Of a DNA stretch of 64,000 nt, positions 9,280 through 15,847 are shown in pieces. The DNA lies in the NCBI GenBank assembly GCA_014871385.1, contig CM026428.1, positions 728,653 to 792,652 of the forward strand, read 5' to 3'. Numbering within the stretch: the first letter of the stretch is position 1; each line of letters begins with the position of its first letter. Source of the stretch: Ceratodon purpureus. Lineage: Eukaryota > Streptophyta > Bryopsida > Pseudoditrichales > Ditrichaceae. The notes below the pieces were generated by a model, which saw nothing but the letters and a program-made list of their open reading frames with translations, was not told the origin of the DNA and ran no database searches. The position numbers and the translations under genes are program-made.

Positions 9280-11034
9280 TGTAATTAGTAAAATTTACAA
9301 ATAGTGGTAAGTCATGGGAATAGGTCTTTTCGTTTAGCTTTTAACGTAACTAAAGGTCACTGTAGTAAGTAAAGAATGATAGAATGCAAAGTATTTCCTT
9401 AAAAGAATCTCTTTATAACTCTAATGTCTTAATTACCCCAAGTCACATAAAACCCAAGCAATCCAAACTCTCAATTGGTTCAAGGGTAATGGGAGTTCAA
9501 ATTGACAAGTACCATCTCTCGGTTTATTGCCATCACTCCCTTCCAAGTTCAATTAGACAATGCATTTATTATGCATATGCAAGTTCATTCATTACTAGGT
9601 TAGAATCTAGTGTTCAACCTATTTATGCCTATGAATGATGCTTTGGGATATGTTATGATAGATTAACTTATCTCAAGCAACTCCTTGCTTGTCTTCATCT
9701 TTTTCCTCCCATCCAACGCATTTCAAATAGACATGTAATCACTGTCTACTCATTCACATTCAATCATACTCCAACTCTACCATTCATCACAACTATACTT
9801 CTCAATTGTATTACTCAATTACAATGACTGCACTATACTCCAATTGAATACATTCAAGTTTTATTATAATGAGAACTAATAATCACTAAGGCTGATCACT
9901 CCTTAATAATTAATTCCACTTTTATCCATCAATGTACTCAATCTGGCTTCCATAAATTCTAAGTCATTCTCAGTCTTCCATTTCAGATGGCCAATCTAAT
10001 TTAAAAGACTATCAAGTAATACTCACTTCACTGTTCCAGTACTCACATGGAACTCTCATTCTCCATAATTCCCATTCACAACAATGCAATGTCAATTGGA
10101 CAAACTGTTGTGTTTATTTTCCATAATTTCTATTTTCTATTCACTCAGTAACTCTTCCTTCGTTCTGAGTTCAAATAGACAATCTCACCCACTGTTCACT
10201 CTGCTCCATCAGCATCTTCGATTTCAAATAGACAGTATCCATTTCAATTAGACAGTATCCAGTGTGAGTCACCACATTCACTGTAACTCTCACCAACTCT
10301 CCACTGAGTCAATTAGACATGGTTCATGCAAGTCAAGTTGACAATGTATGCATGCCCATGGATGCATACCGAACCACCATCTTGTCCATTTGACCAGTGT
10401 TAACTAGACATTATGCAGCAAGTAATATGAATTCAATTGTCAATTAGACAGTAGCCATTGGATCAAACTATTCATTCTATCTCCCATAGTCTACATATAA
10501 ATTCACTGTTCAGCAGATCTGCAGTTTCAATTTGACAGTAAGCTTTGCAAATCAATTAGACAGTAATCAGTTTGTTCCAGTTCTCCATTCTGATTCTACA
10601 GTTCTGCAGATTAATACACTGTGCATCATATCTACAGTTCAATTTGACAAAGAGCATTGTGATTCAATTATACAGTGAGCTACTCAGAGTCAAGTTGACA
10701 ATCAATTAGACAATGGAATTCTATTTTTATATTTTTTACATAATGTGACTATCACTCACACAGTGTTGTGTGGTGTGGTGAAGTAATTCTTTCTTCTTCC
10801 TTAATTCCTAGTTATGCCTTAATTTCTAAAAGGTGCGCCTGTACGTAGAGTCAATTTGACAAGTCGTGTCTCTAGGTAGGGTCATATCCCCTGAATTCTA
10901 CACTATTGTCCATTTGACTCTCAACCAGATTTCTACAGCCACTATCTACATGGATATCAAATTGACATGGTAACTTGGTCCTATTTACACTGTTTTTGCT
11001 GAAAAGGACTTTTCTCAAAAAAAATCAGCTCACA
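9280..11034 (-). repeat. LTR (3' LTR in element orientation)
   Basis: 1,755 bp. In plus orientation it opens TGTAATTAGT and ends CAGCTCACA, so both strands show TG...CA ends. It matches 23940-25694 line for line. It carries eight exact GTCNANTNGAC palindromes (10091, 10308, 10332, 10384, 10439, 10689, 10850, 10908) and about a dozen one-base variants such as TTCAATTAGAC. I did not identify the TATA box or R region. Confidence 0.97.
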
Positions 11035-11048
11035 TAGCCCCCCTCTTT
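11035..11048 (-). other. Polypurine tract before the 3' LTR
   Basis: On the minus strand AAAGAGGGGGGCTA directly precedes the LTR start TGTGAGC. This is where plus-strand DNA synthesis would be primed. It fixes the element orientation as minus. Confidence 0.9.
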
Positions 11049-11166
11049 GTCTACTTGACTCCCGGCAAGTTTCACATTTACAGCATTGTCTACTAGACAC
11101 TATGTCAACTAGACTCAAAAATTATATACAAAGATTAGCTTGCACACACCCTGCAGCTACTGTCTA

Positions 11167-14100: not shown

Positions 14101-14202
14101 AGCAATTGGCCTTGTCAATTTGACCGATCCTGCAACTTCGGGTTGGGGTCTCCCTTCATCAGTTCCTCTGCCTTCTCTGTCAACTTGACCTTCGTTTACC
14201 AT
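11167..14202 (-). CDS. Third ORF of the retrotransposon, 1,011 aa, function unknown (env position)
   Basis: ATG at 14202 (MVNEGQVDREG) to the stop at 11167. Three zones are visible: a basic N-terminus with PKVKVMKNKKSKK (a likely nuclear signal); a globular part to about residue 290; a Lys/Glu-rich segment with long heptad-like stretches (about 350-510, probably coiled coil); and a C-terminal globular half with several Trp and Cys. I see no signal peptide or membrane segment, so an envelope glycoprotein is not supported despite the position. The N-terminal part loosely resembles the plant transposon domain found in some Athila ORFs (weak). At least 16 exact GTCNANTNGAC palindromes lie inside the gene in all three codon phases, which is odd for coding DNA. 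Its base composition is richer in G+C than the adjacent pol. It is a candidate for the protein that binds the motif (hypothesis). Confidence 0.8.
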   Translation of the reverse strand: MVNEGQVDREGRGTDEGRPQPEVAGSVKLTRPIARPKVKVMKNKKSKKTVLADAMQQDLSSGPRRQIEHLELKKIDREAWPQFEANRENFVKAGLWDFVMVVFEEQDDGRINQFLTSSEYGSRGMAVVDGRSVQFNSTAISKMLKLHQGDRLLTEEVGGISEDDLTNVFDRAAKTQSGYKLANAKETWKEWLLFFNQRIMLAEKGPLIMSKEGVAAAIYGWNGVKLSWGNILFDNIKVEISKKHTRYPITLYSAIYLSELTKPSSQVDSGVSTGPVRVLPDLLNLTREPEPRASTPSSSRANKVKKRRVDDSLPQCLFELNPRLGRGTRSASQVDNREPARQPALQLTQTEVAAQLKDALVRETHLRLKIKELERTVFNLTTDNNLAVEDIRRLNIQLANLAQLNEELTKPTVADIEIDTGKSFQELYNDEKQHRIELQRQFDQLNDAKIAISKLCTEERNEKKKLKAELESLKKNPMVKVVNPSDYATLKTNNELYHRTIEIGKKQLQEARMENRALRGELWKVDLTSPPSYSLFHAYELQRDNWLAMVGKDRGCLLDSGDFDAVWAASSRHANQQNLICEMIARGDVQLTDQKKLFLPIGHLGARVVLYYTTLEEQLQKRRQLDMSVESHRLVKMGDSSRQVVDVAEKVPSEELKEWTATLEGLLKEFDDRDNILVKLSCVLERETYAQRGELTTAHYVYGMHKVRQQIMDTLRELKKDHLFITSHDLQVELTLPPPTYKAPGWLSIRTPVTGSPLTVKYLGNYASLFDNEAVFPLPTWTAIEWLLEDYGLSRREERSWDLIYKEIVNVNWTDAAPEAVRTNGHFCDCRRRFKWAPDSLIDSVEYNWPLIPGQFDTAWNCATAYEGFWQIHHTHTDPVCFRAAIFSKFLARICRDFKVVVNVNRYDERRPEFLINLKLRYHSSRWGRMLEVMAMTHFLYGSNGCFINEFRGTRKIAIDNWLTFQHSNNTELLRKDDEVRREVSKLMAQRIQKESHYGDQHRNHHRRHHV

Positions 14203-15847
14203 GATTCCTTCTTTCTGTCTATTAGACTACACACTCGGCAGTTAGTTTGCTTCAATTCTTACTTTGTCTAATTGAAATTTTTCTCGGCATTGACTCTCCC
14301 TGAAACTCTCGGCACTGTCTACTTGAACTCTCGGGAATTTTATCTTTGTTATTTCCTTACTTTTAAAACTATAAAACACTTCTTCCACTCGGCAATCACT
14401 TCTATCCCTAATTTTCTACTTCACAATCATCTAAGCATACATTCCATTGAAAATATTAAGCTTCGTTCTTTCTGTTCTCTCCCTCCTTTCTCTCGGCAAT
14501 CAGTTTGTGATCATTTACGCTCTATTTTCCTATATCAGTGTATTATCATACATACATCACAGCGCAAAGTTTCAGTTTCGTTCCTTTGATCTTTTATCCT
14601 TTCTTTCTCTCGGCAAGTTGTGTCTTGTGTTTCCTAACATCTTTGTCTACTGGACAGTCACCATTCTTCACAAGTAACAGTTCAATTGGACATACAAGAA
14701 GAAGATGCGAAGACAACATGCATTCGACTTGACACAACAGAATGGATGCAATGAAACTCACCCGCAATGTGTCAACTTGACTACGAGAGATATGCCTCTC
14801 AAGATGCAATGCTTCGTCTTCCCCTTCTGTCGCACTGTTTCCAATTGACACACTCACAATGATCAGAAAACTCTGAGTCCAGTCGACCTAATGTATCGTA
14901 TCCCACTGTTTCTCACATCGATATTATCGCAACATCTCTATTAGCAACATTGTGTCCACTTGACCTAACTGTTTCTATGCTAATCAGGTTGTCCAATTGA
15001 CAAAACATCATGCGAACTCAATGACAACACAACTCACCCTCAGTATGCAACCTGAAACACCCTTTGCTCCCCCTTCGATTACTCAATCTTCTCGCACACA
15101 CTCGCTGCAGCAATGTGGTCTTCCAGTTCACTCCTTTCTCTTTCTCGGATCGCTCAGTATTTCTCACAGCTTGGTTACACAAAATGCAACAATGCGACCC
15201 TCGACTTAAAGTGCTTTTTCTCTCAGTCCTCTCGGTATCTCGCTTCGTCTCGTTCTGATCTCCTCACAAGTAAGAAACCTCAGTCCACTTGACAACTATC
15301 TCTCTCCACTCCTAACCCTGATCGCTCAGAGCGTAACACTCTGTCTACTTGACAAAAAACTCACCAAGTCTCTCGCAGACTCACAGCCGGTGCTTCTCCA
15401 AGAAAATGTGTTTGTTTTAAGGTTCTGTTTTCCAGTTTTGGGGAAGATGATGTAGTCTACTCGACTCGACCAGTCTCTTTTGTCTATTTGACAGTTAGTG
15501 GAGTTTTACACTCATTTCCATGCAACGTGGTCATCATGATCACAGCCCCCATTTCGAGTTATCATATCAGCCGTCTTTCTACTCACTAATTGTATTTTCT
15601 GATCATTACTACTTGGTCATCATTTTAGTTAGTGTCTACTTGTCAATTAGTAATTTCCATTTGCTTCGAAAAATTCTCAAGTTCAGAGTTTAAATTTGTT
15701 GAACTTTTACTTTTTGTAACTTAATTTTTTAGATCGCTGGTTTTTTAATTTTTTCAAAATTTCACAGTTTCTAGTACTTAAGTAGGACAGTTTTGAATTT
15801 TTAAATTTTTACACTTACTGCCCCCCTCTTAAATCTAGAACTTGTCC
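14203..15847 (-). other. Untranslated spacer between pol and the third ORF, rich in the palindrome
   Basis: No long frame. About 13 exact GTCNANTNGAC sites lie here, e.g. 14217, 14645, 14771, 14877, 14954, 14991, 15283, 15343, 15455 and 15482. CTCGGCA-like strings (CTCTCGGCAA, ACTCGGCAGT) also recur around 14230-14620. It may contain the subgenomic promoter or splice acceptor needed to express the third ORF; I cannot point to it. Confidence 0.65.
15821..15830 (-). other. Internal polypurine tract just after pol
   Basis: AAGAGGGGGG on the minus strand, about 18 bases past the pol stop codon. It closely resembles the tract at the 3' LTR (AAAGAGGGGGG). It may be a central priming site or the remnant of an ancestral 3' end. 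Confidence 0.6.

What the first reader, a model, noticed from the sequence alone, without database searches (positions are those of the whole stretch)
9280..15700. Dispersed 11-bp palindrome GTCNANTNGAC saturates the LTRs and 3' half of the retrotransposon
I count by eye about 38 exact copies between 9280 and 15500 (8 in the LTR, about 30 in the internal part) plus many one-base variants. An eight-base-fixed pattern should occur about 0.1 times in 6.4 kb by chance. The pattern is its own reverse complement with free bases at positions 4, 6 and 8, as expected of a site for a homodimer. It varies at just those positions (GTCTACTAGAC, GTCAATTTGAC, GTCCAATAGAC, GTCAAGTCGAC). It is essentially absent from gag-pol and the leader. 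No standard retrotransposon signal explains it.
Basis: seen in the sequence. Interest (0 to 1): 0.93.

Follow-up and report, generated by a model that had tools for sequence, protein, structure and literature searches.

The report
Self-addressed palindrome array in moss retrotransposon
A moss LTR retrotransposon carries dozens of copies of one short DNA palindrome in its ends and in its extra gene, selection keeps the fixed bases even at silent codon positions, and the likeliest reader is a DNA-binding protein that the element makes itself.

Summary
GTCNANTNGAC occurs 38 times in 9280-15560 (0.14 expected) and 8 times in the other LTR, and nowhere else in the window. The host is most likely the moss Ceratodon purpureus. 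The element is a minus-strand Ty3/gypsy insertion with identical 1,755-bp LTRs and an extra 1,011-aa gene (ORF2) after gag-pol.

The fixed bases are selected. Between two relatives' LTRs of 68% identity they differ at 1 of 56 positions, against 10 of 21 free and 315 of 1,110 background positions. Inside ORF2, silent changes at fixed positions are rare: 2 per 28.3 sites against 351 per 616. Free bases do not covary, as expected of a DNA-protein site.

The motif follows the ORF2 clade. It is in families A and E; codon-compatibility scans predict it in P0004 and, with drifted outer bases, in P0005. Sister families B and C (ORF2 about 40% identical) lack it.

Best explanation (0.5): ORF2 protein binds the palindrome as a dimer, marking its own LTRs and gene for anti-silencing or activation. 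This works like Arabidopsis VANC but is not a VANC. A host transcription factor is the main rival.

The parts
9275..9279 (.). target-site duplication AAGTC, left copy
   Evidence: sequence printed; right copy
9280..11034 (-). 3' LTR, 1,755 bp, TG..CA, identical to the 5' LTR; 8 exact and 12 one-mismatch palindromes
10091..10918 (.). the 8 exact palindromes of the 3' LTR
11035..11172 (.). short stretch between ORF2 stop and 3' LTR: 4 exact palindromes (11049, 11088, 11104, 11162; the last overlaps the ORF2 end); purine tract next to the LTR at about 11038-11048
11167..14202 (-). ORF2, 1,011 aa: N-terminal region whose relatives weakly match Transposase_32 (below Pfam cut-off), middle that looks like coiled coil, conserved C-terminal domain with no Pfam family; 16 exact palindromes wholly inside the coding sequence
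14203..15847 (-). spacer between gag-pol and ORF2, 10 exact palindromes; candidate ORF2 promoter region (inferred)
15848..22348 (-). gag-pol frame, 2,166 codons: gag, three zinc knuckles, weak protease match, RT, RNase H, integrase; no exact palindrome
22349..23939 (-). leader with two small frames (22621-22920, 22924-23421) and a PBS-like stretch at about 23919-23936 (recognised from memory, not tested); no palindrome
23940..25694 (-). 5' LTR, identical to the 3' LTR; 8 exact palindromes at 24751-25578
25695..25699 (.). target-site duplication AAGTC, right copy

Best explanation
The palindrome is a protein-binding site that the element has built up as an address label. SHOWN: density, base-level selection, spread through LTR, spacer and ORF2 but not leader or gag-pol, the same motif in a second family whose LTRs barely align with these, absence from the sister-family copies read. 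Its coiled-coil-like middle would allow it to bind the dyad as a homodimer; many bound dimers would cover both LTRs and the ORF2 gene. There they would keep chromatin open or activate transcription, so that ORF2 feeds back on itself and only elements bearing the label are freed from silencing. This is the logic of Arabidopsis VANC, in an LTR retrotransposon.
For: (1) Enrichment: 38 found, 0.14 expected. (2) Selection at fixed bases: columns with a variant shared by 2 or more of 30 copies are LTR 0/64 vs 108/1181 background, ORF2 0/132 vs 271/2656, other non-coding 7/108 vs 362/1312 (sites were defined on the window copy, which favours the site columns). 37 of the 38 window sites are exact in at least 26 of 30 copies. 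Cross-scored with an 81%-identical orphan copy, the 17 exact sites defined there differ in the window at 1/136 fixed, 7/51 free and 730/3486 background positions. (3) Family E LTRs at 68.3% identity: fixed 1/56, free 10/21, background 315/1110; in the other direction 1/56, 8/21, 317/1110; P = 3e-6 fixed against free. (4) Silent positions in ORF2: 2 variant columns per 28.3 fixed sites vs 351 per 616 background; free 7 per 10.3. Selection therefore acts on the DNA word. (5) ORF2 itself is constrained: nonsynonymous 149 per 2102 vs synonymous 351 per 616; 30 of 39 full-length listed copies have no stop. (6) The motif follows the ORF2 clade: A has it; E has it, and the ORF2 lying just before the E 3' LTR is 65% like P0004; of 1,792 palindromic patterns GTC.A.T.GAC ranks first in P0001 and in P0004 by codon compatibility alone, with 5 of 10 P0004 windows at places not compatible in P0001; P0005 has the core 42 times vs 14.9 with drifted outer bases; B and C copies have no exact site. 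P0001, P0003, P0004 and P0005 form one clade, support 99/96. (7) Sites and ORF2 sit in one fast-evolving module: A and E leaders are 86% identical while their LTRs barely align. (8) E locus L056 has 34 exact copies in a 1.1-kb tandem array, as VANC targets often do (PMC5735166, passages).
Against: No binding or methylation data. Families B and C keep a homologous ORF2 but have no palindrome of comparable density; their LTRs show only an excess of CTTAAG without within-family conservation. The motif could follow any other part of the element, since gag-pol may share the same descent. VANC21 sits in non-coding regions, whereas here the ORF2 coding sequence is labelled too. Free columns, though more variable than fixed ones, are less variable than background among the A copies (9/114 in all; 12/75 vs 712/3398), and window-defined sites have decayed in the orphan copy at 14/200 fixed positions. 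The DNA of E's ORF2 was not read; it carries two stops.
Confidence: 0.5

Rival explanations
1. A host transcription factor (homodimeric; candidates recalled, not tested: moss LEAFY, TALE homeodomain, ARF, WRKY) reads the sites and drives the LTR and an internal ORF2 promoter.
For: Plant LTRs commonly carry host factor sites (general knowledge). The motif looks like a classical dimer site with independent half-sites. B and C could use another factor (CTTAAG excess). Moss LFY binds a motif different from that of angiosperms (PMC4701952, passages; the letters were not in those passages).
Against: About 91 sites with at most one mismatch per element (71 in 9280-15560, 20 in the other LTR), 16 exact ones inside a coding sequence, is far beyond promoter needs. 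WRKY: only 9 of 38 sites have both W-box halves. The genome excess (6,193 against 3,757 for the reversed pattern) is about what 45 or more A copies at 46 sites each would give, so little remains for host promoters (rough estimate).
Confidence: 0.25
2. ORF2 protein binds the sites for a step of the retrotransposition cycle (cDNA packaging, nuclear entry, integration targeting) rather than for transcription or silencing.
For: Same cis and trans facts as the best explanation; both cDNA ends are labelled.
Against: Leader and gag-pol are not labelled, although coating of a whole cDNA would not need to spare them.
Confidence: 0.12
3. The words act in RNA (dimerisation, packaging, or an RNA-binding protein).
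For: The LTR one-mismatch sites share one polarity (11 left-outer, 0 right-outer, 1 other).
Against: Positions 4 and 8 are not complementary more often than shuffled (13 vs 13.4). Outer mismatches in ORF2 and spacer occur on both sides (6 left and 5 right; 4 and 2). A strict dyad is unexpected for RNA binding.
Confidence: 0.06
4. No function: copies spread by local duplication, conversion or mutation bias.
For: The LTR has a two-copy 20-bp repeat; some LTR sites share flanks; L056 is a tandem array.
Against: Flanks of the 38 sites show no shared sequence beyond the neighbouring base, fixed bases are conserved at silent positions and across 32% divergence, and GTC/GAC triplets outside sites vary at the background rate (43 of 192).
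Confidence: 0.02

Closest known systems
VANC anti-silencing systems of VANDAL DNA transposons, Arabidopsis (PMC5735166, passages read; PMC10398659, abstract and outline read)
   Same: An extra TE gene beside the transposase; a short motif dense in its own element; tandem arrays; motif differs between related families; an unrelated element (AT9TSD1) can share the motif.
   Different: LTR retrotransposon instead of a DNA transposon; dyad word; the coding sequence of the extra gene is itself labelled; no Pfam match in this ORF2, so no DUF1985; binding and demethylation not shown here.
[quoted passage not shown]
   Same: A transposon-related domain in gypsy elements; host members act in silencing and expression, and a promoter motif ('DOWN') is linked to genes that need MAIN and MAIL1.
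   Different: ORF2 has no Pfam match at all; relatives match Transposase_32 only below its cut-off.
Athila and other OTA Ty3/gypsy elements with extra ORFs (PMC6317226, passages read)
   Same: gag-pol order, large element, extra ORF.
   Different: Probable moss host; palindrome array; ORF2 has no strongly hydrophobic segment (highest 19-aa mean 1.18), so no evident envelope. Lineage not placed by a tree.

Membership tests
Ty3/gypsy LTR retrotransposon | LTR pair, TSD, gag, RT-RNase H then integrase | tested here: met
Ty3/gypsy clade Athila (OTA) | RT-based placement, no archaeal RNase H | tested here: inconclusive
   No second RNase H family; no RT tree was made
VANC system | extra TE-encoded protein beside mobility genes | tested here: met
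   ORF2
VANC system | short motif over-represented in its own TE family | tested here: met
VANC system | targets often form tandem repeats | tested here: met
   L056 array; in the window itself only a two-copy repeat
VANC system | sites in non-coding regions | tested here: not met
   16 exact sites inside ORF2
VANC system | DUF1985-type protein of a VANDAL element | tested here: not met
   P0001 has no Pfam match; the element is gypsy
VANC system | protein binds motif and removes DNA methylation | not testable with these tools
   needs DAP-seq, ChIP and methylome
Envelope-like ORF | transmembrane segment | tested here: not met
   P0001 highest 19-residue hydropathy 1.18; 4 of 35 family members reach 1.6 (a hydropathy window, not a TM predictor)
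WRKY W-box | TTGAC in each half-site | tested here: not met
   9 of 38 sites have both

The most novel reading that the evidence does not exclude
An LTR retrotransposon carries a self-recognition system: its own ORF2 protein reads a dyad word that the element has written about 90 times (one mismatch allowed) into its LTRs, spacer and even the coding sequence of ORF2. The label and its reader travel as a module on a shared gag-pol backbone, and the specificity drifts between lineages (outer G/C in A and P0004, shifted towards A/T in P0005, lost or replaced in B and C). This would be an independent origin of sequence-specific anti-silencing.
Probability: 0.42. Interest if true: 0.93.

Novelty: new variant of a known kind. 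Interest (0 to 1): 0.82.

Why it matters
As far as I know (recall and the papers named here), sequence-specific anti-silencing by transposons is worked out only for one group of Arabidopsis DNA transposons. A retrotransposon version in a moss would show that the strategy arose in a different element class. It would also give a function to one of the unexplained extra genes of plant gypsy elements, and offer a natural series (A, E, P0005, B, C) in which protein and target specificity changed. The silent-site result shows that a coding sequence can be shaped by binding sites for, perhaps, its own product.

Tried and rejected
Chance and composition bias: rejected. Regular or helical spacing: not found (CV 0.89 vs 0.86 random). 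RNA pairing: not supported. Local duplication as sole cause: rejected. Envelope: P0001 has no strongly hydrophobic segment. Transposase_32 search of the genome: nothing, and its controls were silent too, so uninformative. Relatives in viral contigs and genome contigs: none. B and C motif search: no dense word like A's. CTTAAG is in excess in all 18 LTR-plus-spacer copies read (8-13 per 2.3 kb, z 6.0-10.0; 16 of 18 above the highest of 95 overlapping control windows, whose top palindromic 6-mer has z median 2.5, max 6.28), but its columns are not conserved within B (variable 4/61 vs 124/1426) or C (8/78 vs 109/1383): kept as a lead only. The first alignment of copies mixed strands and was discarded; redone. 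Literature searches: (two returned no paper); none of the listed titles and abstract starts describes such a motif in a moss LTR element, but the library holds only open-licence papers.

Limits. Codon-compatibility tests used chosen subsets: 15 proteins, 17, 12, each including the pol frame P0002 as control; the tree has 37 rows. The core test on P0005 was chosen, where GTC.A.T.GAC is only 18th for P0005; control palindromes reach 4 in P0005 (motif 5) and 5 in P0004 (motif 10). Alignments used for scoring (BLAST, MAFFT) may slightly favour matching words. Genome searches score only the best candidates (45 of 159), so copy numbers are lower bounds. That L056 and L057 hold LTRs of one family E, and that the ORF2 at C1:9946410 is E's, is inferred from position and similarity. 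The host name rests on a contig of 110,524,308 bases and a total of 362 Mb against a review that gives 110.5 and 112.2 Mb for the sex chromosomes, plus recall of n = 13.
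Full report
What is there. The window lies in a 362-Mb assembly of 151 contigs. Contig C6 measures 110,524,308 bases, which fits a sex chromosome of the moss Ceratodon purpureus (a review gives 110.5 and 112.2 Mb for the two; passages read). The element at 9280-25694 reads on the minus strand: 5' LTR 23940-25694, leader, gag-pol 22348-15848 (Pfam gag, zinc knuckles, RT, RNase H, integrase), spacer, ORF2 14202-11167, 3' LTR 9280-11034. The LTRs are 1,755 bp and identical and are flanked by AAGTC repeats: a recent insertion. 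It belongs to a family (A) with at least 45 ORF2 loci in the genome (45 of 159 candidates were scored); 30 of the 39 full-length matches listed have no stop.

The motif. 38 exact GTCNANTNGAC lie in 9280-15560 where 0.14 are expected; none lies in gag-pol, leader or the rest of the window outside the other LTR. Another 33 sites have one mismatch, 28 of them at the outermost base, mostly G to T on one half only. Free positions prefer A or T next to GTC (59 of 76 half-sites) but do not covary, and flanking position 0 favours T (42 of 76). The 31 exact or one-mismatch sites inside ORF2 fall in all three codon phases (12, 12, 7), and spacing is random.

Selection. In 30 aligned A copies (the window copy included) fixed columns hold variants shared by two or more copies far less often than background: LTR 0/64 vs 108/1181, ORF2 0/132 vs 271/2656, other non-coding 7/108 vs 362/1312; free columns 9/114 in all, between the two (fixed against free P = 0.018). 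37 of the 38 sites are exact in at least 26 of the 30 copies; the one at 14954 is exact in 21. Because sites were defined on the window copy, I also cross-scored. Seventeen exact sites defined in an 81%-identical orphan copy (L035) differ in the window at 1 of 136 fixed, 7 of 51 free and 730 of 3486 other positions; GTC and GAC triplets outside sites differ at 43 of 192. The reverse direction, window sites scored in that decayed copy, is weaker: 14 of 200 fixed, 12 of 75 free, 712 of 3398 background. Within ORF2, synonymous changes at fixed positions are nearly absent (2 per 28.3 sites, none shared, against 351 and 244 per 616), while free synonymous positions vary like background (7 per 10.3) (Fisher P about 1e-7). 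Protein constraint cannot explain that.

A second family. A search for two motifs within 30 bases found 547 places against 2 for the reversed pattern, some outside family A. L056 (C1:21063000-21067000) has 39 exact sites, 34 of them in a tandem array spanning 990-2130 (neighbouring sites 25-58 bases apart), 5 dispersed behind it. L057 (C1:9907488-9910900) holds a related LTR-like stretch and a leader 86% identical to A's. This family (E) aligns with itself at 68% here but with A's LTR only in short pieces. Between L057 and L056 the fixed bases differ at 1 of 56, free bases at 10 of 21 and the rest at 315 of 1110 positions; in the other direction 1 of 56, 8 of 21, 317 of 1110; with one-mismatch sites included 4 of 80 and 10 of 30. 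Two of the seven sites fall in the end of the L056 array.

ORF2 and the clade match. ORF2 has no Pfam match and one PDB match by sequence at E 0.73; 25 of the family profile's 26 PDB matches fall in its middle part, mostly coiled-coil proteins. A region search found 34 relatives at 35-98% identity, without informative names. 14 of the 35 members match Transposase_32 at E up to 1; the four shown in detail are below its cut-off. All invariant columns listed lie in the C-terminal half, 567-939 (many rows lack the N-terminus). Because the DNA of these relatives could not be fetched, I asked whether their peptides could encode the motif. P0001 has 18 compatible windows (1.5 in shuffles), P0004 10 (0.8), P0005 5 (1.2), B 2 (1.2), C 1 (1.2), the pol frame 2 (2.6). 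Of P0004's ten, five are at places not compatible in P0001. In a blind scan of 1,792 palindromic patterns over 17 proteins GTC.A.T.GAC is first in P0001 and P0004 and 18th in P0005. The inner core TC.A.T.GA is in excess in P0005 (42 vs 14.9, 0 of 500 shuffles) as in P0001 (41 vs 15.2), its near-copy P0003 (23 vs 9.6) and P0004 (24 vs 9.7), and in none of the eight other proteins; P0005's outer bases are shifted towards A and T. P0001, P0003, P0004 and P0005 form one clade (99/96; P0005 has a long branch). The ORF2 just before the E 3' LTR, which carries two stops, is 65% identical to P0004; full A copies are 52-54%.

Families without it. B (L036, L040) and C (L037) have ORF2 homologues about 40% identical over the C-terminal half, open in L036 and L037, and 0 exact sites in 9 kb each; 15 further LTR-plus-spacer copies have none either. 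These regions have 8-13 CTTAAG words per 2.3 kb in all 18 copies examined, 16 of them above every one of 95 control windows, but these columns are not specially conserved within families. Whether this is their own label is open.

Interpretation. The sites look and evolve like binding sites of a dimeric protein, and they coincide with the module LTR-spacer-ORF2, not with leader-gag-pol. The candidate reader that travels with the module is ORF2. The closest precedent is VANC, a transposon protein that binds a 9-base motif in its own family and induces loss of methylation; its targets often form tandem repeats and differ between families (PMC5735166, passages). I therefore favour self-recognition for anti-silencing or self-activation. 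That ORF2 binds, that it dimerises on the site and that binding changes chromatin are all inferences. The main rival is a host factor; the absence of the motif from B and C, which keep a related ORF2, is the strongest fact against a conserved ORF2 binding role.

Noticed in passing
L056 990-2130: 1.1-kb tandem array with 34 exact palindromes at 25-58-base steps in a family E locus.
   Followed up: yes
L036 7244-8226, L037 616-1938, L041-L055: Excess of the palindromic hexamer CTTAAG in LTR regions of sister families B and C; not conserved within families.
   Followed up: partly
L036 5591 and 5630; L037 3171 and 3210: Pairs of TTCGAA words that resemble a tRNA box B (recalled) between ORF2 and LTR in families B and C; the tRNA finder reports no tRNA.
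   Followed up: partly
G000 C6:44485039-44515844: Three family A LTRs spaced 14,525 bases apart with two ORF2 copies of equal score between them: probably tandem elements that share LTRs.
   Followed up: no
window 22621-23421: Two small leader frames (99 and 165 aa); a close relative of the 99-aa one is in the family E leader (L057). No convincing Pfam family.
   Followed up: partly
alignment A2, P0003-P0036: A family of ORF2-like proteins with a strongly conserved C-terminal domain that has no Pfam family; found in unnamed public contigs.
   Followed up: partly
window 29716-29993 and 42104-42381; 42583-55474; 47437-48369: Other repeats in the window: a 99% inverted pair, a three-copy direct repeat, and a 300-bp direct repeat with 633-bp spacing.
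   Followed up: no
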